DNA of 64,000 nucleotides from assembly GCA_021030905.1 (NCBI GenBank), contig JAGFMI010000006.1:558001-622000 (forward strand), written 5' to 3'. Position numbers and translations under genes: made by a program. This document shows, one piece after another, positions 33,788 to 53,310 of the stretch (position 1 is its first letter; the number at the start of each line of letters is the position of its first letter). This DNA is from Pyrenula massariospora (lineage: Eukaryota > Ascomycota > Eurotiomycetes > Pyrenulales > Pyrenulaceae). The notes beneath the pieces were generated by a model. It had not been told where the DNA came from and ran no database searches. It worked only from the letters and a program-made list of their open reading frames with translations.

Positions 33788-34051
33788 TTGTCTTTGCATA
33801 TACTATTAATTACAGTGAATGTTTTACCTCTATGACAAAGAATTGGAGATGTTATCACAATTTGAGGTTATACTAAATCTATAAATAGATTTCTTTAAAA
33901 TACATATTTTTTAAATCTAAAATTATTGAATAAGTTATTATGATATAATCTCTGATATCTTCATAATAAACATAGCAAATTTATGCATGTACGGGTGGGG
34001 ACTTGAAGTGATGTAAATGAAATTTTGATGAAAAATTAATAAATACTTATA

Positions 34052-34296: not shown

Positions 34297-34385
34297 GAAA
34301 ATTTATAGTGGCCTCTAAACTCAAAATGTTATATATAAATATAAAATGCTTTCAATAATTTTGAATATATTCTAGAAAAAGTCTA

Positions 34386-35444
34386 CGTCAGAAAAACTGT
34401 TATACCCGTTCTACAGGCGCAGGTCGGCTCAGGCGTCCCCAGAACTTAATTAGAAGGATTCGTCAGGAAAATTGCAACGGCTCCTAGGCTTAAGCTATAG
34501 TTAATGGCTATAGAGGCAGTCTGGGTAGCTCTAAGCTGCTTTAATAGAAGCTCTGAAAGTCTCTGGGGGTCCTAATTAGCTCTGGAGTTGCCTATATGGC
34601 GTTTTGAAGGCCTTGATTGATTCTGGAGATGCCTATGTATCGTCTTGGGATGCCATTTAATATGATTAATATAATTAGTAAAATTAGTAAAATTAATATA
34701 ATTAATATAATTAATATATAGAAATTATTTTTAATAAATTTTTAAATAAAAATTACGGCAATACTTTGAAAAATTATATTTTTATAATTATTTATATTAA
34801 AAAAATTCTAATTGATATATTATTATAATTATTTAAATTTTATTTTATAAAATTATTATTTTGTTATTTTTTTAAGTTAAGATAATCTAAATATACTAGT
34901 TTTATTAATTGTGCTGATTTTATTAATTACATTAATTATATTAATTGGCACTTCAAAGTGCCATAAATATTTTTAAAGCTAACTAAAAAATGATCTTAAA
35001 CTTATTTTATCAATTAAGTTCTAGACGCGCTCAGGCGCGCCTAGACTCATAGTATAGATATAACAATTTTTCTGACGCAATGAAATTAATAAAATTTTTA
35101 TAAAATTAAAGAATTTAGCTTAAAAAGATAATAAAATAATAATTTTATAAAATAAAATTTAAATAGTTATAATAATATATTAATTAGAATTTTTTTAATA
35201 TAAATAATTATAAAAATATAATTTTTTAAAGTATTGTCGTAATTTTTATTTAAAAATTTACCAAAAATAATTTTTACATACTAATTATGTCAATCTTATT
35301 AAATTTACTAATTATGCTAATCGTGTTAAGTAGCACCTTCAAAGCCTCTCAGAGTCTCTATTAGAGCAACCCAAGGCTGCTCTAGAAGCCCCTATCGCCA
35401 TTTGCAAGAGTTCAAGCCCAAGGGCCGTTGCGATTTTCCTGACG
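34386..35444. mobile_element. Interlocked pair of TIR elements forming a large inverted repeat
   Basis: Two pairs of inverted ends are interleaved. CGTCAGAAAAACTGTTATA at 34386 pairs with TAACAATTTTTCTGACG ending at 35077. CGTCAGGAAAATTGCAACGGC at 34461 pairs with GCCGTTGCGATTTTCCTGACG ending at 35444. The second pair has long arms: about 34461-34880 and 35090-35444 are near-complements over several hundred bases. All four ends share the CGTCAG tip with family A. A tandem of TAATATAAT and TAGTAAAAT units sits at 34665-34720. No coding frame. Confidence 0.65.
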
Positions 35445-35501
35445 TACTAGAATTAACTTATTTTAATTAAAACTGGTCCTAAAAAACCAATATTTTATAA
35501 A

Positions 35502-35789
35502 TATTTTAAGGCCCCACCTCTGCAAGTATAGGCTGAAATAAAAATATTTAAAATTTATTAAAAGATATTAGAAGTATTATTACAACGAATTAAAATTTAT
35601 AATAAATAATATCTATTTTTAAATATATTTAATTTACAAATAAATATATTAAAGATATCTATTTATAAATTTAAACTTTTTTAAAACTTTAATTTTTTTA
35701 ATTTATTATAATAATTTAATCGATATCTTTTAATAGTTTTTAAATATTTTTAATATAATTTATACATGCAGAGGTGGGGCCTTAAAGTA
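35502..35789 (+). mobile_element. Family C TIR element, copy 1
   Basis: 288 bp with inverted ends TATTTTAAGGCCCCACCTCT and AGAGGTGGGGCCTTAAAGTA. The interior is nearly pure A/T and has no frame. Same length as the copy at 36645. Confidence 0.75.
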
Positions 35790-35798
35790 TTACTTGTA

Positions 35799-35919
35799 AC
35801 AGATCGCTTATAGAAAGTAAAGCTACTCCGTCAAAAAAATTAAAATATAACAGAACATCTACCAAGAATTCCTTTATAATATATATAATAAATAAAACTA
35901 TACGCATTCCGTAACACTA
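35799..35919 (+). repeat. ~120-bp direct repeat, unit 1
   Basis: Shares order and spacing with 36109-36230: AGATCGCTTATA, then CATCTACCAAGAA, TATAATATATATAATAAA and GCATTCCGTAACA. Differences are mostly C/T and G/A. It may be part of a longer unrecognised element. Confidence 0.6.
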
Positions 35920-36108
35920 TCTTTTATTTTAAAAAATATATTATCTTCAATATATTATCTATATATATAAAATTTTTATTATTTTATAATATAAACTAAT
36001 TATTCTTATTTATCCTTTAAAAATAAATATCTAAAAAATGTAATTGAAAAAAAATAATAAAGAATTGAATTTAAAATATGATTAATTATAAATAGTTCTA
36101 TTATAATA

Positions 36109-36230
36109 TAATAAATCGCTTATAAAAAATAAAACTATTCTATTAAAAGGCTAAAATATAATAAAGCATCTGCCAAGAACCCCTCTATAATATATATAAT
36201 AAACGAGGCCATGCGCGTTCCGTGACATTA
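36109..36230 (+). repeat. ~120-bp direct repeat, unit 2
   Basis: Partner of 35799-35919: AAATCGCTTATA, CATCTGCCAAGAACCCC, TATAATATATATAATAAACG and GCGTTCCGTGACA. It retains more C and G than unit 1, so it is the less mutated copy. Confidence 0.6.
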
Positions 36231-36445
36231 CTATAGTAACTTGAAGTTTAAAAAATTCAACATTGTAATAAAAACTTATTAATTAACTCTTGATCAACGA
36301 GTAGATATTGTATTAATAGTTAATCTAATATTAAGCTTTTAATTTCATAAATAAGATACTCATACCGAGAGTTTTATTTAGAGTAATGAAGTCTATAGTA
36401 CATATTAGAAAGATTGCAATTGATTTGGCGTGGTCTGGCGTACTT

Positions 36446-36630
36446 GTCGGCAGTAAAAAAGACAGGCCGTTTCCAGCAGGCATAAAGCTCCGCGGGGCGG
36501 CGCGGGGCGAGTTTAGTTTTTAATTTTAAAGCTCTTCTTAGCGCTAGCTCTGGATATATAGAGTAAAAAAAGGTACTGTGCGCACGTGGAACTAATCTTT
36601 AAAAATTTACTTTAAAGTCGCTCTTAGTCT
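36446..36630 (-). mobile_element. Family A remnant, inverted
   Basis: Reads on the minus strand as CTCGCCCCGCGCCGCCCCGC, then GTCTTTTTTACTGCCGAC, matching the 3' end of family A. The GTACTGTGCGCAC segment near 36570 matches its internal hairpin. The other end is not clear. Confidence 0.55.
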
Positions 36631-36644
36631 ATAGATAGGTTGAC

Positions 36645-36932
36645 TACTTCAAGGCCCCACCTCTATATATACAATTTATATTAAAAATATTGAAAAATTA
36701 TTAAAATATATCGGTCAAATTATTATAATAAATTAAAAAAATTAAAATTTTAAAAAGATTTAAATTTATAAATAGATATCTTCAATATATTTATTTATAA
36801 ATTAAATATATTTAAAAATAGATATAATTTATTATAAAATTTAATTTATTATAATAGTATCTCTAATATCTTTTAACAGTTTTTAAATTTTTTTATTCCA
36901 ATTTGTACATGCAGAGGTGGGGTCTTGAAGTA
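36645..36932 (+). mobile_element. Family C TIR element, copy 2
   Basis: 288 bp with ends TACTTCAAGGCCCCACCTCT and AGAGGTGGGGTCTTGAAGTA. AT-only interior. A fragment of a third copy (GGGTGGGGACTTGAAGT) lies at about 33993-34009. Confidence 0.75.
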
Positions 36933-37083
36933 ATTACAATTAATACATTAGTATGCTAATGTTGTTTCTGTATAGAGTTTACTATTGAAAGCTATTTTTA
37001 AAAGTAAATTTTTTAGTGTGGATATTATTTAAAATATAAAAAGTTAATAAATTCGCTAAATACTTTTGTAGCCTATATTTATT

Positions 37084-37605
37084 TATTAGTAAAAAGGTAG
37101 ATTTTTTTTAGCGCGTATAAAATTATGTAGAGTAATACAGAGTGAATTAAATTTATAAATTTAAAATTTTTTTTAGCGCTCACTTCGAACAGTTTTAAAT
37201 ATATATAATAAGAAAAATATTATATATATATAAAGTTAATTAGCAAGTTTAAACATTAATATTATAATTTTAAAAAAATTATTATAAAATTATTTTTAAT
37301 TTATAAAAATATAACTAATATAATAATATATTAATAATTAGTATCTAGATATAAAATTTATATTTTAAAATTATTTTTAAAAAAATAAAATTTTTAGTAT
37401 AGACATTTAGTTAATTAAATTTATTTAAAAAAAATTCAATAATTATTCAATAATTATATAGATAATAAAAACTATTAAATTTATTAATTAGTTATATATA
37501 TATATAATAATTTTTTTTGCTGTGCGCGTACACAGTGTTTTTTTAAATACTTTAAATATTTTATATAAATAGAATTGCGCCGCACGGGCTGCGGATTTAT
37601 TAATA
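37084..37605 (-). mobile_element. Family A element, inverted copy, heavily mutated
   Basis: 522 bp. The left end TATTAGTAAAAAGGTAGATTT matches the complement of the family end with C-to-T and G-to-A changes. The right end GCGGATTTATTAATA matches GCGGATTTACTGACG likewise. Same length as the copy at 38464. Confidence 0.7.
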
Positions 37606-37843
37606 ATTATAAATATAATAGTAATTAAAAATAAACTTATTACAAATAATAAGTCCAGGTATTAGAATTTTGATTTTTATAAATTCAAAATTTATAGAAA
37701 GTTAAATCAAAGTTAAATGATAATAAATTATTCATTAATTTTATATAAATTAAAGCTAATGCTCATCGAGTTCTCAACCACTAGACTTATTATCCGCAAC
37801 AAATTAATAGTAAATCTAAAAATAAGCCTGGGGAACAGTAGTA

Positions 37844-38283
37844 CGTCAGTAAATTCGCAGCCCGCGCGGGGCTGGTTAGCGAGTTCAGCAACTTTTGTTG
37901 TTCAGATAACCGTCGGATAATTATCGGGCCCTCTTCGGATAGACTCTAACTAGCTGAATATCCACGGTAAAAATTTTATTCTTTTAAAAATAGCTCTAAA
38001 TCGCAAATTTTACGTTTAGGCGTCACTAGCGCGTTGCTCCATTACCCATAGTTAGTTACATCTCTACAAGCTAAAAATGGTCTTATAATAAAAATTATAA
38101 AATTATGACGTCAGTTGCTGAACTCGCTAACTAGCCCCGCGCGCCCAGCAACTTTTTTTGCTGTGCGCGCGGGGCTGCTCGCGGCGAGTGCTGGGAAAGA
38201 CCCTAAGATTGCAAGCTCAACTCGCCCCGCGCCATCCCGCGCAGCCCCGCGCGCGCTGGAAAGGATCTGCCTTTTTGCTGACG
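37844..38283 (+). mobile_element. Family A element, copy with GC-rich tracts preserved
   Basis: 440 bp, flanked by TA on both sides. Begins CGTCAGTAAATTCGCAGCCC and ends GATCTGCCTTTTTGCTGACG. It keeps CpG-rich tracts (CCCCGCGCGCCCAGCAAC, TTTGCTGTGCGCGCGGGGC at about 38137-38175), so it is the least mutated copy and the best guide to the family. Confidence 0.78.
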
Positions 38284-38463
38284 TAATTCCGCGCGCGTAC
38301 AGTAATTATTTTTACTCTGCGCCCTTGGGATTAGTGCTAAGAAGCTAGGGGCGCTCTGAATAAATTGTACAAATAAGAGTTACGCCCGGTCAGTTGCGGT
38401 TTTACTGACGAGATTTATTTATAGATATAATATTGACGTACAATAAACTTAATTTGGATACTT

Positions 38464-38985
38464 TGTTAATAAATCCGCAGCCTGCGCGGCGCAATTTTAT
38501 TTATATAAAATATTTAAAGTGCTCAGAGAAGCACCGTGTATATATATAGTAAAAAAAGTTATTATATACGCGCAGAACTAATCAGCGAATTTAATAATTT
38601 TTTTATTTAAATAATTATCAGATAATTATTAGAATTTTTTTAGATTAATTAGTATATATTTCTACTAAAAATTTTATTTTTTTTAAAAATAGCTTTAAAA
38701 TATCAGTTTTATATATAAATATTATTAATATATTATTATATAAATTATAATTAATTATATTTTTATAAATTATAAATAGCTTTATAATAATTTTTTTAAA
38801 ATTATAATATTAATTATTAAATTTACTATTTAGCTTTATATATATATGATAATTTTTTTATTATATATATTTAAAGCTATTCTGGATAAGCACTAAAAAA
38901 GATTTTAAATTTATAAATTTAATTTATTTTGTATTATCCCGCGCAGCTTTATGTACATTGGGAGGGATCTGTCTTTTTGTTGATG
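38464..38985 (+). mobile_element. Family A element, heavily mutated copy
   Basis: 522 bp. Ends TGTTAATAAATCCGCAGCCT and GATCTGTCTTTTTGTTGATG align with the family ends through transitions only. It retains ACGCGCAGAAC and CCGCGCAGC islands. Confidence 0.72.
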
Positions 38986-39004
38986 TAACTACTTATTAAT
39001 ATCG

Positions 39005-39198
39005 AATTAAATCCGAGTCTTTAAAATTTTAATATTCTACTGATATACTGCGGATTATTTATAAATAAAATTATTTATTTCAAATTCACAGTCACTAATC
39101 AATAGCCTATTTATATAATGTTGAAACCTTGAATTTCTAACTTTATATTGATAAAATCTCTTGCCGACAATTTTGTCTAAGTTCTAGAAATATAAGGC
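39005..39198 (+). repeat. Family B remnant
   Basis: Contains ATACTGCGGATTATTTATAA and TATTTATATAATGTTGAAACC and ends GTCTAAGTTCTAGAAATATA, matching the spacer and right arm of the family B element at 34052. Its left arm is missing; a family A copy ends just upstream. Confidence 0.5.
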
Positions 39199-39799
39199 GT
39201 TCATGTAAACCTGTCTACTTAAATAAATAGATAAGTAGTTTTGCTGAAGAATTTTGACCCTTTAATTCAATTTAATTCTTATTATAGTACTAGTATAGTG
39301 TTAAAATTACTGATTGGATTTAGTACATTATCTCTATATATTGTATCTAAATTCATTTTAAATAGTAGTATCCTGCCCGTCAATCTGCTAAGCTGGTTTT
39401 ATAGTAAATATTATAAACATGTATAGACTATCTTTTATATAAAGATTATAAAATTAATATCAAAAACTCAAGTTGACAGCTTGCTGTTAAGCTTTCATAC
39501 TGTATACATCAGTGAAATTGCAGGCGACCCAGCGCTGCCCCGTGCGGCCACATATTCGTGTAGCAACACTTTAAAATCTATGTATATTAGATGACATTGA
39601 ATAACACTGTAACGAAACCGTCTATAACTCTAATTCTAATTATCTGATTTGGTTAATATATAACTTGGTAGTTTTAGTATCGCGAAGTAATTATGTACAA
39701 TTATATACTTCTTTGTTTAAATCTATAATCATAATTAAATAACTATAGTATCTTTACCTTATATAATTAGCTATTCCATTACAACACTGAAATACTAGT

Positions 39800-39856
39800 A
39801 ACACTGAACAATCTTACGCATGTAGGGTTAGGAGGAGGTCTGCCTTTTTACTGACG
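39800..39856 (+). repeat. Family A end fragment at the block border
   Basis: GGTCTGCCTTTTTACTGACG followed by TA marks one terminal fragment of family A. Ordinary base composition resumes immediately after it. Confidence 0.55.
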
Positions 39857-39858
39857 TA

Positions 39859-40611
39859 CTATATAACGCTCTATAACATTGAGGAACGTGAAAATGACAG
39901 TAGATACCAGTGACAATCACTTCAGTGATGGAGCAGAAGAATGATGTTCGGATCAGAAAATGAATAGACGTTGTCAAAGGTAGAGATCATGCATAAATAC
40001 TGCGGCTTGCCGACTCTTGCTATCACTCGACTGGACCCTCTAGCAGTCGGCTAACCAAATGAATATGTACTTGGGCTGAGAATTATGCTGTGTTTGGATC
40101 TTTCATGACAAGATAAAAGGTTGAGGAGGCCACTGGCAGACTGTCCAAGGACGACACCTTGGTTATTCTGGTGGAGATTCATGTCCACTCTGTTGAGGTA
40201 AAAGCTTTTTCTTCAGGTAACTTATTGCTTTGAATGTCCCTAATGACCAGTGGAAATAATATATAGTACATCTTTCTCTTGCCGCTAGCTCTTCAAGCAC
40301 CCGAATTGGAAGCTAAATCACATCGCAATTTACGACATTTGAACAATGAATTTGTACTGTTCGCTTAATGCTGCCAGGTAGGTGTAATTCCTTTGTTTGG
40401 ACATGCTGTCTATCCGTGGATAAATACATTGCCTCAATGCCGTTTCTTTGTTTTTCTTGACTTTTTCAACAATAAAGCTACTATTTCTTTCAAGGGCCCT
40501 TACCTCACCTAGATTATATTTTACGCGCTCCTGTAGTAGAAGCTAATCGACCATTAAATTTCTCTCTTCTATCAAACAGAAACGTTGAAGGTTAAACTCG
40601 CTGCCTCCAAT
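39859..40611. other. Upstream region of the tyrosyl-tRNA synthetase copy
   Basis: About 0.75 kb of ordinary composition between the AT-rich block and the synthetase start. No gene recognised. Confidence 0.4.
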
Positions 40612-41682
40612 ATGCCTAATACCGCAATAAAATTGTCACTCGATGACGAGAGAAAGTATGCCTTGATCACCGCAAATCTCCAAGAAGTTATGAAAGGAGA
40701 AATCATACGCCAAATTCTCCCTGTACGCCCCTTGAAGATCTTTTGGGGAAGTGCAACAACAGGTCGGCCACATGCTGCTTACCTGGTGCCAGCAATCAAA
40801 ATAGCCCAGTTCTTGCAAGCCGGATGTGATGTCAAGGTCTTATTAGCAGATCTTCACTGATTCCTTGACGCTGACAAAGCTCCCGAGTCTCTGCTCGAAG
40901 CCAGAGCACAATACTACGAAAAGGTCTTCAAAGCCATGTTGCGGGCGGTCGGGGTGGATCAGAGCAAGCTACAATTCGTCCGCGGAAGTTCATACCAGCT
41001 GACACCTGAATTCTCGAGAGATGTCATGAGACTTAGTAAGAAGGTATCAGTTCACAATGCAATCAAGGCCAGTAGCGAGATCGTCAAGAGCACCGGTGAT
41101 CCCACAATGGCAGACGGCATGTATCCTCTAATGCAACTACTGGATGAGGAGTATCTTGATGTTGATGCACAGTTCGGAGGGGTTGATCAGCGAAAGACTT
41201 TTGCACTGGCAAACGACACGATGAAGAAAATGGGTTTCAAGACTCGAGCTCACCTTCTCAACCCGATGGTTCCGGGACTCGCTGGCGGGAAAATGAGTAG
41301 CTCAGATCCGAAGTCCAAAATCGATCTCTTGGACGATCCTGTGGTGATTCGGAAAAAGATTGCAAAAGCATACTGTGCCCCTAAAGATACCGAAGGAAAT
41401 GGCGTGTTAGCAATCATACAACATGTGCTTTTGCCTTTTTCTGCTCTACAGTCAGCCGATGGGGTTCCATCCCTTCAAATAATCAGTGGCGATAAATCAC
41501 TAGCGACGAAATTTACCAACTATGATGATTTAGCTGCGGCGTATCAGTCCGGAACTATCAGTCCACATGCTATCAAGAAGGTGGTCGAGGAAGGACTTGT
41601 GGTGATTACGAAGTCGATCCAGGTGGATTATGAGGCGGACGAAGAGTGGCAAGCACTTTCTTGCGAAGCTTATCCTACATGA
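40612..41682 (+). pseudogene. Second-copy tyrosyl-tRNA synthetase with one in-frame stop
   Basis: Class I aminoacyl-tRNA synthetase that would charge tRNA-Tyr. The frame spans 357 codons from ATG 40612, is intronless and contains one TGA at 40858-40860 (codon 83). That lies in the conserved LLADLH-x-FLD segment, where cytosolic TyrRS has Ala or Gly. All else is open. Motifs: [14 protein letters not shown] (HIGH-type site, diverged from the usual HCGY or HIAY), GSSYQLTPEFSRD, FGGVDQRKTFALA and GGKMSSSDPKSKIDLL (KMSKS loop). It ends EADEEWQALSCEAYPT as fungal TyrRS cores do, but lacks a C-terminal extension. The divergence and the position next to an NRPS-like gene suggest an accessory copy, perhaps for self-protection or tyrosine handling. 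A sequencing error at the stop cannot be excluded. Confidence 0.8.
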
Positions 41683-42115
41683 ACGATCTCAGGAAAAAAA
41701 GGTGGATGGAAGCACTTGCACGATGGAGCATCCCAGTTCTTCTTTCGGGTTAGTAGGCTATCTTCCCCAAAGGGATTAGTTTACTTAGATAAATTTAGCA
41801 TGGCCTTCAATAAACACCTTTTTTTCTATCTATTTGGGAGAAAGTCGCCGGCAGCCGCAAAACTCTGCCCTTGATAATGAGAATCATTGAAATACCCTTT
41901 GTCTCTTTTCGTGATAGACTGATGTGACGATATCTCTCAGCTCAAAAGGCCTGTTGACGCTCTCGCGTTGTCAATGCGTAAGGTCATGTGGGGGAAGCAT
42001 CAACTGACTAGCGTGCGAAGATTCTAACTGCCATTAAAGACATCTAGTAAAATACACTAACTGTACTAAACCCTAGTAAAGCTATAAAATTTGAAATTTC
42101 TTCTCTTTTCTCTAT
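41683..42115. other. Convergent 3' region
   Basis: This lies between the synthetase copy (plus) and the 404-residue gene (minus). No coding signal. Confidence 0.4.
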
Positions 42116-43330
42116 CTAAATTAATGATTTCTCGACGTTGCGAGTGAGCTCTCGGTAGAACCAGTCGGGCTCGACACGCGAGTGGCGATTCCTCCAAACA
42201 CCTTCAAGAGCGTTTGGAATTAATTGCTGAATCATTTCTAGAATACTCCGGGGCATAGGACGATTGAGTAGGGGACAACATACAGCCAAAATCTCAAAGA
42301 GGGAATGATGTCGCCCATTCAGCAGCAGGGCAGCAACAGCAAACTGAAGTAAGGGAAGCTGATCCTCAGACCCGCCAAGCACCAACCAAAGTGCTAAAAA
42401 GCGATACGCAGTACCAGAGGGACCGCTCAGCATGTAAAGACCTTGATCGGTAGCTGAGAGTACCATTGGATCGTTTTCCACCAGGCTATATTTGTACGCA
42501 CCTATTACGTACGGCAGCTTCTTTTCAGCGCAAGATGCTAATGTCGCCGATGCACCGAGCGCCATCTTTACTTCCTGTTCCGACACCATGGGGGCCGTCA
42601 CCTCACTTATTCGGGATGAAGTCTGCCATAGGTAGTCTGTGTACCGACCGTGCTTTCCAAAGTCCTCAGGAGCGATACGAGTTCTAGCCACGTCCTTCCA
42701 CACCCGGCGGAGATGGGCTGGAGGAGATAGTATCTCGTCGATATCGCCGAAAGCAGCATGTGCAACGAAATAAAGCAGTTGCTCCGCGTCGACAACTCCA
42801 AAATCGTGCAGCTCTTGCAGGAGAGAGTCACCCTCCGCGAACTCGATTGCCAGACGATGCATCAAAGGCCTCAACCCTTCGAGCGTATCCCGCATCGCAT
42901 GGAATTGTACACGGCTGTTACCTTCCTCTCGCAGCCACCGGAGCTTCTCAAGACTGACATTGATTGGCATCCAGCCAGGTCGACGATGTTGAACGGCTTC
43001 AAAAAAACACACCAATTTGTCCCATAACGTAGCCATCACCAGCTCCGGAAGCGGAGTTTGTGCCAAGAGCTTGGATATTTCTCTCTCAACCACTCTGCAG
43101 GTTGTTGTTCTCGACACGCGATTTTGTTGAATTTCGGTGCTCAAGGAGACGTTTGTGGCAAAGCTGGTGTCATTTGCCAAAACTCCCGATCTGCGCAATC
43201 GCGAGCACACCGTTCGTTTATGAGTGATCGAGAGATCTTGGTTATTGGATGACAACAACGGCTGAGGGCCACAGATAGCGTCAAGCTTGTTTATGGATGC
43301 TGCGAGGCGGGTTGTCCCAGAAAGACTCAT
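42116..43330 (-). CDS. Unrecognised 404-residue protein in the putative cluster
   Basis: Intronless frame from ATG 43330 to the stop at 42116. It is predicted to be mostly helical and soluble, with no signal peptide, clear membrane segment or cofactor motif that I recognise. Notable stretches are RRPGWMPINVSLEKLRWLRE, LLYFVAHAAFGDIDEILSPP and a hydrophobic segment AYRFLALWLVLGGSEDQLPL. It shares an upstream region of about 520 bp with the NRPS-like gene, so the two could be co-regulated. Its codon use looks like a genuine gene. Function unknown; a cluster-specific enzyme or regulator is possible but unproved. Confidence 0.65.
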   Translation of the reverse strand: MSLSGTTRLAASINKLDAICGPQPLLSSNNQDLSITHKRTVCSRLRRSGVLANDTSFATNVSLSTEIQQNRVSRTTTCRVVEREISKLLAQTPLPELVMATLWDKLVCFFEAVQHRRPGWMPINVSLEKLRWLREEGNSRVQFHAMRDTLEGLRPLMHRLAIEFAEGDSLLQELHDFGVVDAEQLLYFVAHAAFGDIDEILSPPAHLRRVWKDVARTRIAPEDFGKHGRYTDYLWQTSSRISEVTAPMVSEQEVKMALGASATLASCAEKKLPYVIGAYKYSLVENDPMVLSATDQGLYMLSGPSGTAYRFLALWLVLGGSEDQLPLLQFAVAALLLNGRHHSLFEILAVCCPLLNRPMPRSILEMIQQLIPNALEGVWRNRHSRVEPDWFYRELTRNVEKSLI

Positions 43331-43854
43331 GCTGGGTATAGTACGTTGTTCCAGAAGGAGATATCAGCGCTATGATCAATTTAGGTATTGAACGGCTCTT
43401 TATTAGCGTTTGAGTGTTGCAAAATCTCCAAAAACGTGTAATACAGAAGGTATACGGAAGAAACGACGTCTTTCTTGATTGCAGTTCGCCTAGTCTTGAT
43501 GGGCTTCAGCATTTTGAACCCGTCCCCTCATTTGTAGTCCTGGAAGTTGATTACAACCGTTTCTTCCTTTGAACAGTTCTTACATGTCACTGGCAAATTG
43601 TCCACAGGCTTTGTCTAGTCCTTTGAACAACGAAGAAAATGTACAATGCCTTTGCGTGATTGAAATATCTCAAACTCAACTAACCTATTTAAAGTTCTCG
43701 CCGTTCTCCAATATCAAGTAGGTTCTGCTAAGAGACAAATTTTCTAAGATTTTGATCTAGATTTTTCCAACGATAACAATCTACAAATTTGTCTTTCAAC
43801 TCCCACAACATTCACCCAGACCGCTCGGCAAATTCAAAGATACACTTGGCGGAA
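43331..43854. promoter_or_regulatory. Divergent promoter of the 404-residue gene and the NRPS-like gene
   Basis: About 0.5 kb between two outward-facing starts. No binding site is assigned. Confidence 0.35.
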
Positions 43855-46800
43855 ATGTCCGCAGCCTATGAGTTCGACGAGAGAACTTTACCCATGGAGG
43901 AGATCAGTAATATACCCAATCCGAGCTCCAAGTCTTGGCAGTATGGCTGCAATGTGGACATATTCGAAGAGCAAGCCGCTAGCACTCCAAACCAAATTGC
44001 TTTGATTAGCCGTCGTGGGGTTCTGTCATACGCAGCACTCAATGCAAAGGCTAATCAGCTAGGCCACCAATTAGTCACTCTTGGAGTCAGACCAGAGACT
44101 GTCGTTGGTGTTAGTCTGGAGCGTGGCATAGATTACGTGGTGTGTATGCTCGCTATTTGGAAAGCGGGAGGAGCTTATCTGCCCTTGGACGTCTCGTTGC
44201 CGACAGAGAGATTACATCATATGATTTCGGATAGTAGAACCGCCTACATCATCAGTATGAAAGATATCGCGGAGCAGAAGAATATTGTTGGTAATTGTGG
44301 ACAATGTCTTCTGCTAGACGATCCTGGCCAGCGCAAAACCCTGGAACGTGCTCCAAATACGAACTTGCCAGGACGATCCAATCGCAATGACCTTGCCTAC
44401 GTGATTTACACCTCAGGAACGAGTGGTAGACCTAAAGGAGTCGCAATCACGCATTATGGTATTCCAAATATGGCCTTTGACCAGCGTCGAACGCAGGAAA
44501 TTACTCAGGCAGACCGAGTAATGTTGTTCTCAAGATTTTGCTTCGATGCTTCACTTCGCGATATTAATGGCGCTCTACTGAATGGCGCCTCACTCTATGT
44601 ACCAGAAGAAGAAGAGGTACTGCCGGGAAAATTGGTGGAAACTCTGCGTGAACAGGCCATCACCTACGTCGTTCTGACCCCATCCGTCCTAAGATGCTGT
44701 GCCATCGACCCTTTGCCAAAGCTTAGAAAACTCGGCATTGCAGGCGAATCAGCTGATCACGCCCTAATCAGAAGATGGGGGAAGGGAAGACTCCTTATTA
44801 ATGCATATGGTCCCACAGAAGCAACAGTTTGCTGTAGCAAGCGGTCCTATGTCGACGGTCACATCGAAGACGAGACACCAATATCAATTGGGTCACCCAT
44901 TCTCAACACAAAAATCCACATCATTGACTCGTGCGGTAACAGTGCTACCCCTGGCGAGGTTGGTGAGATATACGTCCAAGGACCAGGGGTCAGCCGACGA
45001 GGGTACCTGAACCTACCTGCCCATACAACTGAGCGTTTCTCAGATAAAACAATTAGCTCGAACCGCGGATACAGAACTGGTGACCTAGGTCGGCTTTTGC
45101 CAAATGGGGAGATCCAGTGTCTTGGACGCAAGGATGGCTAGGTGAAGTTGAATGGCCAACGCATTGAACTGGAAGAAGTTGAAAAAATCATTCGCAGCAA
45201 CCGTCATGTACAGGACACTGTTGTTTTAGTAAGAGGTCCCTCAGACGCTCGTACGCTTGCAGCATTTGTTGTTTCCGCAGAACCCAGCCTGTCCTCGGAG
45301 GCAAGGCGCGAGCTCTCAGCAAACCTTGAGTGCAGCTTGCAGCACAATTTGCCACCTTACAGTGTCCCCAGTTCCATCCTCTTTGTTCAAGAATTTCCAA
45401 AGAGTGCGGCGAACAAAATTGACGTCGCTGCTTTGCTACAGTCCACGGCAATAGCAGGCGATACTGGCGCCAAAACTACCGTTGCGGAGTGTACAGCCGT
45501 TCAGAAGGAGGTGATGAAGCTGCTTTCGGAGGTCTTGAAGCTACCGTCGGACCTCAAAGTAAGCCCCGACACTACCTACGCCCAACTGGGAGGAACATCC
45601 CTTCAGACTCAGATTTTGCTCCTGAAACTTAACGACGTATTTGGCTGCAATATACAGATAGGAGCGTTCTATAGCCAGAGACAGACTCTCTCCAATCTTG
45701 CAAACTTAGTGTCTCGAGGAAAGTCCCAGGACCCTAACGCCTTCCATCCCAGACTTGCCGATGAAGTTCGCTTGCCACACGACATTTCGCCTCGTAGTCT
45801 ACCTCGCAGAGCAAATCCATGTCGAGGAGCATCGCATATCCTCTTGACTGGAGCTACTGGCTATCTTGGTGCCCACCTTCTCTCTGAGCTTCTTTCTCAA
45901 AATTCGTCGAAGGTCACCTGCATTGTCCGTTTGTCTGATGAAAATGTAGAAGATCAATGCCGGGTTGAGAAGACACTGAGATCTTGGAACTTGTGGCGCC
46001 CGACTTACCGCGAGCGCATCGAAATCGTTTCTGGAGATCTCAGCAAGCCATTCATGGGTATGCCTTTTGATACTTACGCACGCCTAGCACATAGGGTTGA
46101 TAGTGTTTGGCATTGCGCTGCTGCCGTCAATTTCATCCAGCCATACAGCTACTTGAAGGAAGCCAACGTCACTGGTACGATCGAGGTCATGCGATTTGCT
46201 AGCTCTATCGAGCGTAAGCAACTATACTACTTTTCAACCTTAGCCGTTTTCTTCGGCGCTGACGATGTCTCATTTGGACAAGAGATCAGTTGTGAATCTT
46301 GGGCCGAGAAGATACCGACCGGGTACGCTCAAAGCAAGTGGGTAGCCGAGCAGATGGTACTTGAATACCAGCAGCGAGGAGGAGACGCTATAATTTTTCG
46401 CCCCGGTCGTCTGCTTGGTAGCACCCGACATGGCCAGTGCCCAACGGATGATATGACGGTACGTCTTCTTTCTTCCTTCGTCGAGACTGAGGTAGCTCCG
46501 AACATTGACTGGGATTTGGACTTTACCCCTGTTGACATTTGCGCTAAGGCAGCTAACGACATTTCATCGAAGGTTAGTTATGGTATCTTTCACATTGTAA
46601 ATCCACAGAGCGTCAAACTTCGAGAAATTGTCGACTGGATGTGCGAAATAGGTATTCAGATCCAGATGATACCCTTTCAAATGTGGAGGCAGTGTATTCT
46701 ACACAGTCCCATGCTTAGCCCTTTGCTAAGTCTTTTTCATGCGTCAGTCGACTCCGATGGTAATACTGTCTTCGACTTACTGCTAAGTAACAAGTGCTTC

Positions 46801-47040
46801 CGGTCTAGCGCATTTTCCACAGAGCAAACTGCCGCAGTTCTAAATGGGACTGACACCTGGCGATTCCCAGGATATACAGAACTTCTCAGCATGTACGTTT
46901 CAACAACGGCCCCAAAGATCAAACGGCGACAAGTGCCAAGTGTCGACATTTCGAGGATTCACTCCAACATATGTGATGCTGTCAAGTCACCTACGAAAAA
47001 TAAGCCATTGCAAACACAAATCAAATCACCAATGTCATAA
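43855..47040 (+). pseudogene. NRPS-like reductase (adenylation, carrier, thioester reductase) with one in-frame stop
   Basis: Single-module enzyme that would activate a carboxylic acid, load it on a carrier domain and release it as an aldehyde or alcohol with NADPH. The frame has 1062 codons from ATG 43855 (the upstream extension begins only with TTG). Adenylation motifs are A3 YVIYTSGTSGRPKGVAIT (~183), A5 INAYGPTEATV (~317) and A7 YRTGDLGR. A8 reads GRKDG-stop-VKLNGQRIELEEVE: a TAG at 45139-45141 sits where the family has Gln (CAG). An Asp in FDASLRD, the usual binder of the alpha-amino group, points to an amino-acid substrate. The carrier site is LGGTSLQTQ (Ser ~582). The reductase has the nucleotide-binding LTGATGYLGAHLL (~664) and the catalytic pair in YAQSKW (~824). 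There are no introns. The protein is truncated unless the stop is bypassed or is an error. Confidence 0.88.
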
Positions 47041-47648
47041 TAATATGGACACGAGTAGTGCGACGAGCGTCGCTATTCGGCACATCAAGTGAAGAGATTC
47101 TTGGCCGGTTTGTAGAGATCTTTCCAGCAATACAACGAACATTTTCTAGAATTCTTATCGTTCTTATGCGTGCGTATACGACCATCTTCGTCAAAGGTTC
47201 CATATATTCGTTCCTCATTATAGCCCTTGCCACAGTTAAAGGTAGGGTCTCGCTGATATTCCCCTGTAGAACCTGGACATATGAAAAGATCCTCAATGAA
47301 TGAATCATGGGTGTCCATGTTAATTCAATATATTTGAGATTTCCTATACAAAAGTGCCAAACAGCAAGTAATCGCTAATTGGCACCAATATATACTTAGT
47401 AGATCTTAGAGTAGTGTCTAAGATGCTCCATTAAATTAGGGCTATTCAGTGTTAACAAGAAGGCCTGGCGGAAAAGTCTCCGAACTAATATGACCATGCA
47501 CGTATGAGCAAGAAAAATGCGGAATGAAGTGGATAGGATATGAACTCTAGCTAGGAATACGTCACTCGCCTACAAGCCACTGTTTTCTCTACACGGGAGG
47601 CAAAGTTGGTTTTAGTCACCACTATCATGCGCAAAGCATCTCTCAAGA
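47041..47648. other. Convergent 3' region
   Basis: This lies between the NRPS-like gene (plus) and the kinase-like gene (minus). Short frames on both strands at 47058-47318 are complementary shadows with no family match. Confidence 0.4.
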
Positions 47649-48611
47649 TCATTCCGTCTCGTTATATACAATGCGCAATCTCTGTAGGCAATCTTCAACG
47701 TGCTGCTTCCACTGTGGTCCATGGGTCGCTGCCCACACGGCGAAATGTGAGATTGCCAGAGAATGGAGCACTTTGAGTCGTCTTCGCTCGGCATCAGAAC
47801 ATCCATAGGCATCCGCTAAGCCTACGGCAGGTAAATCTAGGTTTGCGGTGAGGTAAGCCAGATCCCACATCGGGTCTGCGAGGTTCATGTCCTCAAAATC
47901 GATGCAGAAGAGCTTGCCAGCCTTGTCCAACATGAGATTTAAGCTGTGGAGGTCGTTGTGGCAGGGTTTCAGGATCATGGACGAGTCCTCGGCGACCACT
48001 GTAGCATCACCGAGGACCCGTTCGATGAGCTTGACATCCCCGGTACGCATCGTTCCCTGTACCTTGATCAATCGCAACATGCCGCGCACAACAGCAACAG
48101 GATCATACCTGGCCATCCACCCCTCCGCACGTTGCTGCCCGTGCAGGCGTCGGAGAAGCCCAACAACATTCTCTGAACACTTCACTGCCATTTTAGGGGT
48201 CAGAGTCTCGCCATCAACAAACTTCATCACGTAGCTACCCGTTTTCTCATCAATCACGAGTACCTCCGGCCCAAGGCCTACCTCACCCGCCCATTTCGCA
48301 CGCGTGCCCTCGGCTTTGCACGTTGCCGCACCTTCAGGCGTGTGGATCCGTGGGATCTTGACCATGAACTTCCATCTTCCAAGCTCGATCTTAATGCAAA
48401 CCTGTGCGGACCAGCCCAGGTGATTGCATGCTGTGACGCGAGCGGGATCATTGGTGGGCAAAAACCGCCTGCACAAGGACTCAGCGAGCGTGAGGTTTGA
48501 GACGGTTGGTGGTGAGGACGTTGGCCATTCGAAACGCTCTGCCGAGACGGGGTTGTGAGTATCTACTTTTTGGGTAGACACGGGCAGAGTGGGAGTTGCC
48601 ATGGTGGGCAT
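47649..48611 (-). CDS. Aminoglycoside-phosphotransferase-fold small-molecule kinase
   Basis: Intronless frame of 320 residues from ATG 48611. It has the APH/choline-kinase fold signature: a Lys in the N-lobe (GRWKFMVKIPR), the catalytic loop CHNDLHSLNLMLD (Brenner-type HxDxxxxN) and the metal-binding Asp in FCIDFEDMNLADPMWDLAYL. Family members phosphorylate small alcohols or amines such as choline, thiamine or antibiotics; the substrate here cannot be told from sequence. Its position between the NRPS-like and dehydrogenase genes suggests it might modify the cluster product or an intermediate, or protect the host. That is inference. An in-frame ATG four codons downstream is an alternative start. 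Confidence 0.75.
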   Translation of the reverse strand: MPTMATPTLPVSTQKVDTHNPVSAERFEWPTSSPPTVSNLTLAESLCRRFLPTNDPARVTACNHLGWSAQVCIKIELGRWKFMVKIPRIHTPEGAATCKAEGTRAKWAGEVGLGPEVLVIDEKTGSYVMKFVDGETLTPKMAVKCSENVVGLLRRLHGQQRAEGWMARYDPVAVVRGMLRLIKVQGTMRTGDVKLIERVLGDATVVAEDSSMILKPCHNDLHSLNLMLDKAGKLFCIDFEDMNLADPMWDLAYLTANLDLPAVGLADAYGCSDAERRRLKVLHSLAISHFAVWAATHGPQWKQHVEDCLQRLRIVYNETE

Positions 48612-48990
48612 GCAAGGTTGTTAGTAACGTGTTTGCAGAATCGGCAGGGACTTGTATAAAGAATCGTAAGCGACTACAAACGCTCCCACGGTTCAAAGGC
48701 AGAACACCAGATATTTGAAAATCATGAAACAAAGACACACCAGCACATGCTAGAACAACGCTATTGTTGTCTAAGTGGCTTTGTAATCTAGGGCACTCCG
48801 CTTTGGCTTAATCACAGGGCAAGTCATTGAAGCATGCGAAGCATAATTTCTCTTTCACAACGATACTTGGCAAGGGAGAGGCATTGCAATAGCAATAACG
48901 GTCTGCTAATCATTATACTCCAGTGTTATAGATGTTGTATCATACCATAGTAGGCCGTGGTCAAGATGTGTCCTCTCTTGGTCAATTTTG
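48612..48990. other. Intergenic region
   Basis: Upstream of the kinase-like gene and downstream of the dehydrogenase gene. Nothing recognised. Confidence 0.4.
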
Positions 48991-50221
48991 TTACTCTGTA
49001 ACCTTTAGTACAGCTCTGCCTGTTAAATTGCCGGAGTACATCATCTCGAAGAACTTGTCGACATCCTCCAGAGTGCCTTTGTGCAAGATCGGCTTTCGTC
49101 ACCTAATTAGCAAGCGCTTCTCCCAATGGTTCCATGCCATCTACTCACATGCACTAATCCTCTGGCAGTGAAGTCAAGGGCCTCTTCAACCTCCTTCAAT
49201 GTCCCAACAACACTTCCAACGACCTTTAGGCGATTGAGGACCATCGTCAGAGGTGGCGCCCCAGCAATCACGCTAGCATCGTGAGGAAGTCCAACCGCCA
49301 CAACTGTTCCATTCGGACGGAGAAGAGTTGGCGCCGTTGCATAAGCAGCTTTTGACGCGGCCGTGACAACAACGCCATGGGCCCCATATGTTGTGATCCG
49401 TTTGACTTCGGCGGTGATATCTTGGACCTTGCGGAAATTAATGAAATGCTCGGCGCCTAGCTCTTTGCAGAGATCGCCTTTCTCGTCCGTCCCGTCTATT
49501 GCAATGACACGCATACCCTAGAGGACATTAGCCTAGGCCGTCGACATTGTCAGATATTACCATTGCTCGAGCAAACTGCACCCCAAAGTGACCGAGCCCA
49601 CCCCCAGCTCCTGGGAGTACCAACCATTGGCCAGGTTTGACACCACTTCGCTTGCAAGCTGCGTAGGCAGTGACACCTCCACACATAATAGGCCCAGCAT
49701 CTTCGTCTTTCACACCATCAGGGATCTTAGAGGCGTATTTGCCATCACTAAGAGCGTATTGTTGGAACGTTCCAGGTACAGTTACCCCTGAATTCTTTTG
49801 TTTCAGGCAGTGGACTTCGTCTGTTCCGTTGAGACAGAATTCGCATTCTCCACAGACGCTCCAGATCCATTTGATACCTGCTCGATCTCCAATTTTCCAT
49901 CTGTGGTTCATTTTATCGCCAACTGCAACCACGACACCAACTCCCTCGTGGCCTGCAATACCTTTTGTTTCGGGTGCCATGTCAACTCCCATCTCCTTCC
50001 ATCCACCATGGATCAAAGCGCCATCTGAGCTGCAAAGACCCGTCCTAAGAAAGTTAGAAAAGTAAGTGGTACGGCAAGTAGTGATACCAGGTAATCTTTA
50101 CGAGAATTTCACTCGGCCCAGGTAGCTGCACATCAATTTCCTGTGCTGGCGCTTTGGCTGTTTCACCTTTACCGACACGCACAGCTGCGGTCTGGGACTT
50201 GGGAACCTCGAAGCCCGTCAT
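48991..50221 (-). CDS. Zinc-dependent alcohol dehydrogenase (MDR family, ADH1-like)
   Basis: NAD(P)-dependent oxidoreductase interconverting alcohols and aldehydes. Four exons: 50221-50088, 50044-49561, 49517-49149 and 49092-48991, giving 362 residues. The GroES-like half shows ITWTGLCSSDGALIHGGW (catalytic zinc Cys; Ser-Asp follows as in Adh1), GHEGVGVVVAVG and the structural-zinc cysteines in CGECEFCLNGTDEVHC. The Rossmann half has LPGAGGGLGHFGVQFARAMG. Reading exon 3 through its GTGAGT donor gives a foreign tail. A final exon beginning PILHKGTLEDVDKFFEMM restores the usual end (GRAVLKVTE); its acceptor (GAAAG) is weak. The enzyme could act on the aldehyde released by an NRPS-like reductase, which supports but does not prove cluster membership. 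Confidence 0.87.
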
Positions 50222-51756
50222 GTTGTCAAGGTTGGTATGCTCCGATACCGCGAGAGGATACAATGGATTGAGTCAGACAGATTTCGTGTCCGTTGAGCCG
50301 ACAAGAGAAACTATGATCAGTTTGTCCTCGTGACCTAGGCTGGTATTTATGTTTCCCTTTTTGTAGACTTTCATTGTGAACAGGATTCCTGTGGATGAAT
50401 TGATCTTGCAACCAACCACATCTCTTCTCTCATTTCCTAAAGGAGAAAGTCGCGCAGAATTCTCGCGCGCGTAGCATGATTTTCATTACCCGGGACATCG
50501 TAGAAGGACTTGATTGCGAAACCTTGCAGTGGATCCGAAGCTGAACCCTGAAGTCCATGCATGGCTTTCTCCAATGACAGATTGCAGATATGTGCCAAGG
50601 TGAGAATAGCTTCCATGCAAAATTCTCGACCGACCAGTTTGAACCAGGTAGCCAGGATCAAAGGAGTCTCCTGAAGCGATCCCGCCTTCTTTTAGCTTGC
50701 ACCTTTTCATATTCATTGAGCGTTGTCACACTTTCTGGATCCTACATATCGCATAATTCTTGGAGCACGCTTATTAAGGCCAAATATGCTCTCAAATTCG
50801 GTAAGGCTGAGAACCATGGTCGTCATCTTACTGGCGATGGAAGTGGAAACGGAGGCTCCACGCATGGGCAATTGAACTGAGCGAACGTCGACAAGTCTTC
50901 TCCGGAAGGCCCGGTATTGGTCATCTTGCATTAGGCATCTGTACGACGAAGCAGATTCCTCGATCTGATTGTTTTGAGAGAATCTCAAAGACCCGTTGAG
51001 CCGTTCTCTGAAAGGAGGAAGTGGGTGAGGGAAAAGCGGGGCCGCTAAACCTCGTATGGTTGCAAAGCGTCGCCCGGGTTCTGACACGCAACGAGGTCCC
51101 TTACAAGGACTTTCCTTTGGACGTGGAGAACCAAGAGCAGAGCGCCACATACAGACATGACATTCACAGTCGCAGTGATATCTGCCGGCCGCCGAACCCG
51201 GTATAGGAGCGGTAAGTCGCAGCAACGACGTTCAAGACCTTTCCGTCGAGGCTGTACCTAGGGTACGCTTACCCAACCCTTAACGTCTCAATTTTGCCAA
51301 TAACGTAACGCGGTTTTCCCTTTGAGCTTCCCATTTCCTGAATTTGGGGGAGAATTCATACCAGTACACATAGTAGCCGAAGAGTGATCTCTGGAGAGTT
51401 TGATCTATCTCAACTTGTAATCCATGCAAAACGCGAGAATGCACCATTCCAAGGTAGTATGGGTTCAATGCTGCCAAGGAAGGCTACCAAGAGAATGCGG
51501 GAATCGCGCGTCGTCTCGATGTGGTCCAAGGGTGGGGCAGCTTTTGAGTAAGCAGCGTACTGGAGGCTTGTATCCAAGTCACACAGTGCAAGAGGCTTTT
51601 CAAGCTCGTTGGAAGATGAGTTGTTCCACACAGGGTTTCATCTGCCTACGAAATCGACAAGGGCAAGGGTCAGAAGGGCTCGCCTTCAAGAATGGCCCTG
51701 GATACGGACGCTGGTAAGTCAGTGGGAGGAGAAGGCATACTCTTCATCAATCAAAG
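50222..51756. other. Upstream region; unresolved coding signal
   Basis: About 1.5 kb between the dehydrogenase and regulator genes. Minus-strand frames at 50437-50716 and 50713-51225 could be pieces of an unrecognised gene, but I could not join them by splice sites to anything familiar. The first exon of the regulator must lie in 51400-51720, where arginine-rich sequence (TKSTRARVRRARLQEWPW) precedes a GTAAGT donor at 51715. Confidence 0.35.
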
Positions 51757-53310
51757 GCAAGCGTCTTTCTCAGCCGAGAACCAACGCATGGTCGCCGGTC
51801 GGGCGAGGAGATGGTACACCGATCAAAAGCATCGGAACCAGCGAGCCTCTGCGCGACAAGAAGCCCTATACGCTAGAAGTCTGGTTGGTTGGAGGGCTGG
51901 GAACTCATCGTCTCAAAAGACTCAGCTTCCATCGTCTGAGGATATTCAGCCTGCACCTATCACTCTAGAGGTTGGCAGTGGCTTGCGCGTTGACCCTTTC
52001 AATGCCCTTCCAATCGATCATACCAGAGATGTGATGGACCTGACTGACTATTGTATGTTCGACTAAGGTTCCTTTTCATGCGCTAACAGCACGAAGTCGT
52101 TCACGTATGGACACATCTGAAGTCCTCAAATATCGACACTTTGCTCGGCTACGACACCTATCTTAAATTCTACTGGCCAAGGGCTCTTGAGGACGAGATG
52201 CTTCTCCATTTGACGTTAGCTGTGAGCCAAGGAGCACGCCTTCTGGCCTATCGGTTACCACCCGAACGTGATAGCTTTCTGTTGAGTCATGGTGGCGTAG
52301 CTATGACCAAGCTTCGAGAGAGAGTTTCTTCGGGAGTCGTTAGCGAGAGTGTTATTTTCGCGATGGATTTCATGCTCAGCATTGCCTACATGCTAAATGA
52401 TCACTCCGCTTTTGATATTCACTACAATGCGTTCAAAAAGGCGGTGCAAGCTTTCTCGAACAAGCGAAATGATGATATAGCGGCTGTCGTTGCTTATCGT
52501 CTAAGAGGCTGGGAGTCACTCAATGCATACAGGCTTGGGACCGACCCTTTAAACCCGTCGTCGGAAGCTGAACTGACCTATATTCGTGACTCACCGCAAT
52601 TCTTGTCTCTTGCGCCTGGATTCTGCGGCTTAATGAAGTTAGGAATGCTATCTTTGGAAGTTGCGGCGGTGGTGGTCACAATGAGCCGTGCTTTGAGTAA
52701 TGCGCCACCTCGCGACTCCCAAGCTATTGATCGAATAATAGCTCTCCTATCTTGTGAGCATTTAACCGGCCTGGAATCGCAGGTCTGCTACGCTCTCTTT
52801 GCACTGTCCGTTTACTTGAACAATAGTCTCCACGAGGAACTTGATCGTCTGGACATGGTTGCTCGGGCCTTTATCAATAAGAAGCTTTCATTGGCTTCCG
52901 ATCTCGAGCGACGGTGCTTCGTCTGGTGTTCGCTGGTACTCGCCAGCGTGCTCCTTGCGCTTGATGCCGAAGCACCATCTGGGCCAGGCGATACCCACGT
53001 TCAACGACTGAGGTGGAAAGGACATATCATACTCGTGGTCATCAGGGAAGAGCTAGTACAATATGATGCTTGGAACGCTCTCCACCCTGAACTACTCAAC
53101 CAATTTATCTCTACACCGGCTCTTCTCGAGCATTGGCAACATGATTGGGAAGCTACGATGACAAGAGAACGCGCCTGGGAGACGAGCGGGGATTTGCAAG
53201 TCAGCAAGCCATTGAGTGGGCGGGATGGCGAACAAAGGCTGATAAACGTCGAGTATTTAGTGCTTCGAGAAGGAAGGGAGAGTCTGCCACAAGTGGAGGC
53301 AGTCAACTGA
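51757..53310 (+). CDS. Fungal-specific transcription factor-like protein, 5' end unresolved
   Basis: Two exons are supported: 51757-52052 and 52097-53310, about 503 codons. The join uses a GTATGT donor. The acceptor is the GAAG before 52097, the only one that keeps frame. The sequence DPFNALPIDHTRDVMDLTDY, then FVHVWTHL, LGYDTYLKFYWPRALEDEML and LHLTLAVSQGARLL matches the all-helical domain common in Zn2Cys6-type and DUF3468-type fungal regulators. I see no Zn2Cys6 cluster. The 5' exon has a GTAAGT donor at 51715, but the choice of upstream frame, and so the start, is not settled. It lies at the outer end of the putative cluster and may regulate it. Confidence 0.65.

What the first reader, a model, noticed from the sequence alone, without database searches (positions are those of the whole stretch)
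40612..53310. Candidate tyrosine-linked biosynthetic cluster pairing an NRPS-like reductase with an extra TyrRS
Six genes sit between the AT-rich block and conserved genes: a divergent second-copy tyrosyl-tRNA synthetase, an unknown 404-residue protein, an adenylation-carrier-reductase enzyme, an APH-fold kinase, a zinc alcohol dehydrogenase and a fungal regulator. Fungal A-T-R enzymes that reduce tyrosine are known (LnaA/LnbA of Aspergillus flavus). A spare TyrRS next to such an enzyme would fit a product that mimics or draws on tyrosine. The gene content is seen in sequence; the tyrosine link is inference.
Basis: partly seen in the sequence, partly recalled or inferred. Interest (0 to 1): 0.8.

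Follow-up and report, generated by a model that had tools for sequence, protein, structure and literature searches.

The report
Fungal amino-acid reductase cluster with stops
This stretch of a fungal chromosome holds a small set of genes that look built to turn an amino acid into an amino alcohol, beside an odd extra copy of the enzyme that loads tyrosine onto its tRNA; as sequenced, the two central genes are cut short by stop codons, so the pathway is probably dead here.

Summary
The TyrRS-like gene (40612-41682) has an in-frame TGA at 40858-40860; the A-T-R gene (43855-47040) has an in-frame TAG at 45139-45141, inside adenylation motif A8. Conserved sequence continues in frame on both sides, so neither is an intron. 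The other four genes are open. The A-T-R is otherwise canonical; its pocket (D-A-R-V-G-A-A-V-C) fits an alpha-amino acid but does not prove tyrosine. The TyrRS-like protein is farther from yeast TyrRS (48% identity) than human is (58%). It keeps its catalytic motifs but lacks the anticodon-G34 aspartate and aromatic loop kept in 7 of 7 comparators, so it is hardly the housekeeping enzyme and fits poorly as a spare one. The APH-fold kinase's best solved relatives are choline/ethanolamine kinases, which would allow a route amino acid, aldehyde, amino alcohol, phosphate. No genome is held and no fungal collection is on hand, so second copy, synteny and co-expression are untested. Best reading: a recently disabled allele of a small amino-acid-reductase cluster. 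The tyrosine link remains inference.

The parts
40612..41682 (+). TyrRS-like gene, intronless, interrupted by in-frame TGA at 40858-40860 (82 codons before, 273 after)
40858..40860 (+). in-frame TGA in the TyrRS-like gene, directly after the conserved ADLH motif
   Evidence: flanks aligned to human and yeast TyrRS
42119..43330 (-). intact 404-aa ORF of unknown family; divergent from the A-T-R gene across a 524-bp gap
43855..47040 (+). NRPS-like A-T-R (carboxylate reductase) gene, intronless, interrupted by in-frame TAG at 45139-45141
45139..45141 (+). in-frame TAG inside adenylation motif A8, at the hinge between A-core and A-sub (motif and hinge recalled)
47652..48602 (-). APH-fold kinase, 317 aa; best solved relatives are choline/ethanolamine kinases, best NCBIfam model is the kinase GntI (below its cut-off)
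48991..50221 (-). zinc alcohol dehydrogenase, modelled as 4 exons, 362 aa, no in-frame stop
51692..53310 (+). putative regulator, 2 exons (preferred intron 52053-52096), 524 aa; no Pfam match
33000..40000 (.). AT-rich block with inverted repeats and RIP-like dinucleotide bias (index positive from 34001), beside the TyrRS-like gene

Best explanation
A small fungal secondary-metabolite locus of the amino-acid carboxylate reductase kind, now disabled in this sequence. In the intact form (inferred) the A domain would activate an alpha-amino acid, perhaps aromatic, the T domain would hold it as a thioester and the R domain would release it as an amino aldehyde. The zinc ADH would reduce that to an amino alcohol, and the choline/ethanolamine-kinase-like enzyme could phosphorylate the hydroxyl. 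The divergent TyrRS paralogue would be an accessory of that pathway, such as a tolerant target copy or an enzyme with a non-translation role. In the sequence at hand, one nonsense codon in each of the two central genes truncates TyrRS to 82 residues and A-T-R to 428 residues, without A-sub, T and R, so no product is expected. Shown: gene content, stops, motifs, divergence. Inferred: substrate, pathway order, link of TyrRS to the pathway, recency of the loss.
For: Both stops sit between conserved stretches read in one frame. The downstream pieces remain clean frames of 273 and 632 codons with strong family scores (PF00579 E 9.3e-35, PF07993 E 1.3e-59; TIGR01746 265.8 bits against a cut-off of 213.35), which suggests recent loss. 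The pocket keeps the amino-acid aspartate. TIGR01733 passes its cut-off with the first piece alone (336.6 against 317.4). The kinase's best solved match is 3dxq, a choline/ethanolamine kinase family protein (2e-9). The TyrRS is divergent: 154/320 identities to yeast, 158/320 to human, against 185/320 yeast-human, with 64 query-only against 37 yeast-only changes (p 0.007). Nonsense and frameshift alleles are common in such clusters: 23 of 33 clusters in A. fumigatus (PMC5711037, passages).
Against: Two stops could be base-calling errors; no reads were available. Cluster membership rests on proximity only: promoter comparison gave no support, no genome is held and no fungal relative came from the scans made. 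The kinase's best NCBIfam model is not a choline kinase but GntI (2.7e-17, 63 bits against a cut-off of 357), so its substrate is open. RIP-like indices are low inside the genes, so the stops cannot be blamed on general RIP spreading from the AT-rich block.
Confidence: 0.5

Rival explanations
1. The cluster is functional and the two stops are sequencing or assembly errors (or a rare strain variant). It makes a reduced tyrosine analogue of the tyrosinol type, and the extra TyrRS is the tolerant target that protects the producer.
For: The gene set suits an amino-alcohol product. The catalytic centre of TyrRS is kept (HAAY, KMSSS, human Y166, Q170, D173, Q188), with one change in the tyrosine pocket, human Y39 to F. 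Aminoacyl-tRNA synthetase self-resistance is known in fungi: Lys-tRNA synthetase with cladosporin (PMC10320164, table passage). That tyrosinol-type compounds inhibit TyrRS is recalled.
Against: Two separate stops in two neighbouring genes, while the other four genes of the set are open. Loss of the G34-binding aspartate and aromatic loop would harm charging of tRNA-Tyr. Tyrosine specificity is unproven.
Confidence: 0.18
2. No cluster at all: the TyrRS-like gene is a decaying duplicate next to a mobile-element block, and the A-T-R, kinase, ADH and putative regulator are unrelated neighbours.
For: The TyrRS-like gene starts about 0.6 kb from the AT-rich block. No shared promoter signal. Excess of query-only changes, weakest conservation in the anticodon domain (31/102 against 123/218 identities to yeast, derived), and a stop codon.
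Against: Catalytic motifs of TyrRS are still intact, which a long-dead copy would not be expected to keep. Kinase, ADH and A-T-R make chemical sense together.
Confidence: 0.22
3. The TyrRS-like protein is a neofunctionalised enzyme: it makes tyrosyl-AMP or tyrosyl-tRNA for the pathway rather than for translation.
For: The adenylation site is largely kept while the anticodon determinants are lost. [quoted passage not shown] PMC9437257, passage).
Against: The A domain of the A-T-R already activates its own substrate. The gene is interrupted here. No biochemical data.
Confidence: 0.08
4. The stops are bypassed in the living fungus, by mRNA editing or programmed read-through.
For: Stop-codon editing occurs in the sexual stage of some ascomycetes (recalled). 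Both frames remain clean downstream.
Against: Long neighbouring ORFs are open under the standard code (for example 1400 aa at 3943-8145, and 828 aa at 54062-56548), so the code is not changed. Two different stop codons in two genes. No read-through context that I recall follows either stop. No tRNA gene was found in the window (ARAGORN with the bacterial code, which may miss intron-bearing tRNAs).
Confidence: 0.02

Closest known systems
LnaA / LnbA (Aspergillus flavus), HqlA, BrsA, AsaC: fungal clade I A-T-R carboxylate reductases that reduce amino acids (PMC9605436, passages; AsaC also PMC10512218, passages)
   Same: A-T-R architecture, amino-acid type pocket, single-module NRPS-like enzyme
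   Different: This copy is interrupted in motif A8; neighbours include a TyrRS-like gene, an APH-type kinase and an unknown ORF; its code could not be compared because the LnaA/LnbA codes were in no passage seen here
Fungal self-resistance synthetase: Lys-tRNA synthetase of the cladosporin producer (PMC10320164, table passage)
   Same: an extra aminoacyl-tRNA synthetase gene linked to biosynthetic genes
   Different: tyrosine instead of lysine; anticodon determinants lost; reading frame interrupted; presence of a second, housekeeping copy not testable
pts cluster of Aspergillus pseudoterreus: NRPS-like CAR PtsG plus an acetolactate synthase copy, PtsB (PMC12616698, passages)
   Same: a CAR-type reductase in one cluster with a copy of a housekeeping enzyme
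   Different: PKS-NRPS product and a different target; nothing like a TyrRS is named in the passages seen
Eukaryotic cytosolic TyrRS (yeast 2DLC, human 1N3L/5THH)
   Same: sequence family, HxxY and KMSSS motifs, four of five checked tyrosine-pocket residues
   Different: human Y39 is F, G34-binding Asp is Ala, aromatic loop lost, internal stop; ends near yeast residue 356 of 394

Membership tests
Fungal amino-acid carboxylate reductase (A-T-R, clade I) | A, T and R domains in one frame order | tested here: met
   searched as two pieces: AMP-binding; AMP-binding_C, PP-binding, NAD_binding_4/TIGR01746
Fungal amino-acid carboxylate reductase (A-T-R, clade I) | uninterrupted reading frame | tested here: not met
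   TAG at 45139-45141; as sequenced it is a broken copy
Fungal amino-acid carboxylate reductase (A-T-R, clade I) | alpha-amino-acid pocket (Asp at GrsA 235, Lys at 517) | tested here: met
   Asp by alignment to 1AMU; Lys by motif in the second piece, not by alignment
Fungal amino-acid carboxylate reductase (A-T-R, clade I) | L-tyrosine specificity as in LnaA/LnbA/HqlA | tested here: inconclusive
   pocket D A R V G A A V C; Arg at 239 is atypical; no LnaA code at hand
Fungal amino-acid carboxylate reductase (A-T-R, clade I) | placement in clade I of the CAR tree | not testable with these tools
   no collection of fungal genomes or CAR sequences is offered
Self-resistance aminoacyl-tRNA synthetase | second copy besides a housekeeping gene | not testable with these tools
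   no genome held; divergence suggests a paralogue
Self-resistance aminoacyl-tRNA synthetase | catalytic motifs intact | tested here: met
   HAAY, KMSSS, Y166/Q170/D173/Q188 (human numbers) kept; Y39 is F
Self-resistance aminoacyl-tRNA synthetase | able to recognise tRNA-Tyr (G34-binding Asp and stacking aromatic) | tested here: not met
   Ala for Asp and no aromatic in the loop; 7 of 7 comparators keep both; role of the Asp in PMC10135938 (passages)
Self-resistance aminoacyl-tRNA synthetase | intact gene | tested here: not met
   TGA at 40858-40860
Housekeeping cytosolic TyrRS | conservation expected of the essential gene | tested here: not met
   more diverged from yeast than human is; 64 against 37 lineage-only changes; internal stop

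The most novel reading that the evidence does not exclude
A fungal pathway that reduces tyrosine (or a close analogue) to an amino alcohol and phosphorylates it, giving a mimic of tyrosyl-adenylate that blocks TyrRS, with a cluster-borne TyrRS paralogue whose tyrosine pocket (Y39F) and tRNA-binding end have been remodelled, either to tolerate the product or to serve the pathway itself outside translation. This genome would carry a disabled allele, and relatives the working one.
Probability: 0.12. Interest if true: 0.75.

Novelty: new variant of a known kind. Interest (0 to 1): 0.4.

Why it matters
If the set is a real cluster in relatives, it would point to a natural inhibitor of eukaryotic tyrosyl-tRNA synthetase and to how the producer copes with it; no such fungal case showed up in the listings of the searches made (open-licence PMC papers only, listings capped). 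Even as a dead allele it gives a concrete search query: an A-T-R gene beside a TyrRS lacking the G34 aspartate. It is also a caution, since the two genes that carry the story are both interrupted.

Tried and rejected
Introns hiding the stops: rejected by inspection. An intron removing 40858-40860 or 45139-45141 would also remove conserved core residues that lie immediately on both sides. Changed genetic code: rejected, since long neighbouring ORFs are open under the standard code. RIP as the general cause: of 32 stretches of 2 kb, the composite index is positive only in the three from 34001 to 40000, and it is negative in each of the six genes. Structure of the 404-aa ORF: single-sequence AlphaFold2 gave mean pLDDT 45.4, not used further; its best PDB match has E 0.021, taken as chance. 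Relatives: 3 of 3 viral-contig scans found nothing; the genome-contig scan gave 5 prokaryote TyrRS at 25-28% identity, all 5 kept as comparators; plasmid tblastn for the second A-T-R piece gave 555 records, each below 60% identity, of which I saw 10 rows, bacterial NRPS. Shared promoter words: nothing convincing. An attempted splice of the putative regulator used a wrong start and was replaced.

Limits: the 320-column comparison uses HMMER alignments made to the query, with yeast and human aligned to each other only through it; the loop around yeast F296 aligns poorly. The roles of human Y39, Y166, Q170, D173 and Q188, the motif names, and the numbering of yeast D321 and F296 as counterparts are recalled; the role of M. 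jannaschii Asp286 and Phe261 is from passages of PMC10135938. Comparison of the pocket with known codes other than GrsA was from memory only and is not used as evidence. The ADH model is one of 123 splice combinations of 340-362 residues and was picked by eye for its full-length end. Lists of resistance-gene families in supplements, and the FRIGG study named in PMC10320164, were not looked at.
Full report
Setting. The window is fungal: genes with short introns, a snoRNA of the A. fumigatus family Afu_335, and a Clr2 silencing-protein domain. No whole genome is held for it. The finding lies between an AT-rich block (33-40 kb, GC down to 0.205 per kb) and an ABC transporter gene at 54062-56548. 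The block has TpA/ApT of 1.11 or more and a positive composite RIP index from 34001 to 40000, and inverted repeats of up to 295 bases at 87% complementarity, as expected of RIP-degraded mobile elements (inference).

What is really there. The TyrRS-like frame runs 82 codons from 40612, meets TGA at 40858-40860, and continues for 273 codons. The residues before the stop align to the ADLH motif of human and yeast TyrRS, and those after it to the next conserved block FLD..KAP; in both comparators a single residue lies between them, so there is no room for an intron. The A-T-R frame runs 428 codons from 43855, meets TAG at 45139-45141, and continues for 632 codons. The stop lies in motif A8, between GRKDG and VKLNGQRIELEEVE, at the hinge between the two parts of the adenylation domain (motif and hinge recalled). 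The other genes are open: the 404-aa ORF and the kinase, the ADH, which splices to a 362-residue protein in a four-exon model, and the putative regulator, for which a two-exon model with one GT-AG intron gives 524 residues (one of five frame-compatible introns).

The A-T-R enzyme. Piece one scores 336.6 bits against the amino-acid adenylation model TIGR01733 (cut-off 317.4), and piece two 265.8 against the thioester reductase model TIGR01746 (cut-off 213.35). The best solved matches are linear gramicidin synthase and tyrocidine synthase 1 for the first piece and the MxaA reductase domain for the second. Aligned to gramicidin synthetase 1 (1AMU), the pocket positions 235, 236, 239, 278, 299, 301, 322, 330, 331 read D, A, R, V, G, A, A, V, C; GrsA has D, A, W, T, I, A, A, I, C. 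Five of nine are identical. The choice of positions and the meaning of the Asp (alpha-amino acid substrate) are established knowledge, recalled. The Arg at 239 is unusual and stands against a simple tyrosine call. Fungal A-T-R enzymes of clade I reduce amino acids: LnaA, LnbA and HqlA tyrosine, BrsA phenylalanine, AsaC leucine or isoleucine (PMC9605436, passages).

The TyrRS-like protein. Over 320 columns shared with yeast and human, identity is 154 to yeast, 158 to human, and 185 between yeast and human; 64 sites differ only in the query and 37 only in yeast (relative-rate p 0.007). A housekeeping TyrRS of a filamentous ascomycete should be closer to yeast than human is (inference), so this is very likely a paralogue. 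The HAAY and KMSSS motifs and four of five checked tyrosine-pocket residues are kept; the fifth, human Y39, is Phe (roles recalled). In an alignment with the five prokaryote TyrRS fetched plus yeast and human, the aspartate that binds anticodon base G34 (M. jannaschii Asp286, described as conserved in archaea and eukaryotes in PMC10135938, passages) is kept in 7 of 7 comparators and is Ala here; the aromatic of the K(F/Y/W)GG loop is kept in 7 of 7 and is missing here, with the caution that this loop aligns poorly. Identity to yeast is 123/218 in the catalytic part and 31/102 in the rest (derived). The protein ends near residue 356 of the 394-residue yeast chain.

The other genes. The kinase matches PF01636 (5.5e-15). 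Its three PDB matches at E up to 0.01 are 3dxq (choline/ethanolamine kinase family, 2e-9), 4r77 (choline kinase, 2.5e-5) and 7s3l (aminoglycoside phosphotransferase family, 0.0082). Its best NCBIfam model is GntI, a kinase of guanitoxin biosynthesis (2.7e-17), far below the cut-off, followed by thiamine kinase; so it is an APH-fold small-molecule kinase of open substrate. With the zinc ADH (best NCBIfam match AdhP for both exons searched, below the cut-off as pieces were used) this gives a chemically sensible order: amino acid, amino aldehyde, amino alcohol, phosphate ester. This order is inference. The 404-aa ORF matches no family in Pfam or NCBIfam; the putative regulator matches none in Pfam, and its second exon none in NCBIfam.

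Is it a cluster? Untested in the way that matters: no fungal genome collection is available, and scans of viral contigs and prokaryote genomes brought no fungal relative. The 404-aa ORF and the A-T-R gene share a 524-bp divergent gap. Of four upstream regions, three hold no CGG-N0-20-CCG site and the ADH/regulator gap holds three, about the window average of 2.1 per kb; one word of 11 bases is shared between two of the regions. That is no support, and little evidence against.

Why the stops most likely mean loss. Clean frames with strong scores continue for 273 and 632 codons, so the lesions are young or artefactual. Nonsense alleles in secondary-metabolite clusters are common: 23 of 33 clusters in A. 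fumigatus strains had nonsense or frameshift variants (PMC5711037, passages). Sequencing error cannot be excluded without reads. Indices inside the genes do not show general RIP. As sequenced, the A-T-R product would lack A-sub, T and R and the TyrRS product most of the catalytic domain; neither should work.

Literature. No paper linking a tyrosyl-tRNA synthetase to a fungal biosynthetic cluster was seen: 0 papers held all terms; the 25 of 798 listed show no occurrence of the TyrRS term; the 2 papers are on other topics by title; the 9 show no occurrence of 'aminoacyl-tRNA synthetase'; the 20 of 22 listed include synthetase reviews and FunARTS, none of which by title or abstract start describes such a cluster. 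The library holds open-licence papers only, supplements were not read, and most listed papers were seen as listings. A housekeeping-enzyme copy beside a CAR is known: PtsB with PtsG (PMC12616698, passages).

Verdict.

Noticed in passing
window 33000-40000: AT-rich block with RIP-like bias and several long inverted repeats (for example 35495-35789 with 36645-36939, 87% complementary; 34666-34880 with 35115-35329, 90%), probably nested remains of mobile elements.
   Followed up: partly
window 33625-33658 and 38114-38147: GC-rich 34-base repeat at 97% identity that stayed GC-rich inside the AT-rich block.
   Followed up: no
window 18283-18372 (-): snoRNA of Rfam family Afu_335, lying between two minus-strand ORFs (16703-17899 and 18365-19396) that look by eye like parts of an RNA-binding protein gene; it overlaps the edge of the second by 8 bases.
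   Followed up: no
window 42119-43330 (-): intact 404-aa ORF without any Pfam, NCBIfam or convincing PDB relative; AlphaFold2 from one sequence gives only low-confidence helices.
   Followed up: partly
window 58218-59736 (-): two long ORFs that read by eye like parts of a membrane transporter but match no Pfam family at E 0.01.
   Followed up: no
window 45139-45141: the stop in the A-T-R gene falls at the hinge between A-core and A-sub, so a split enzyme would break at a natural joint; the first methionine codon after it comes more than 100 codons on, so this is probably coincidence.
   Followed up: partly
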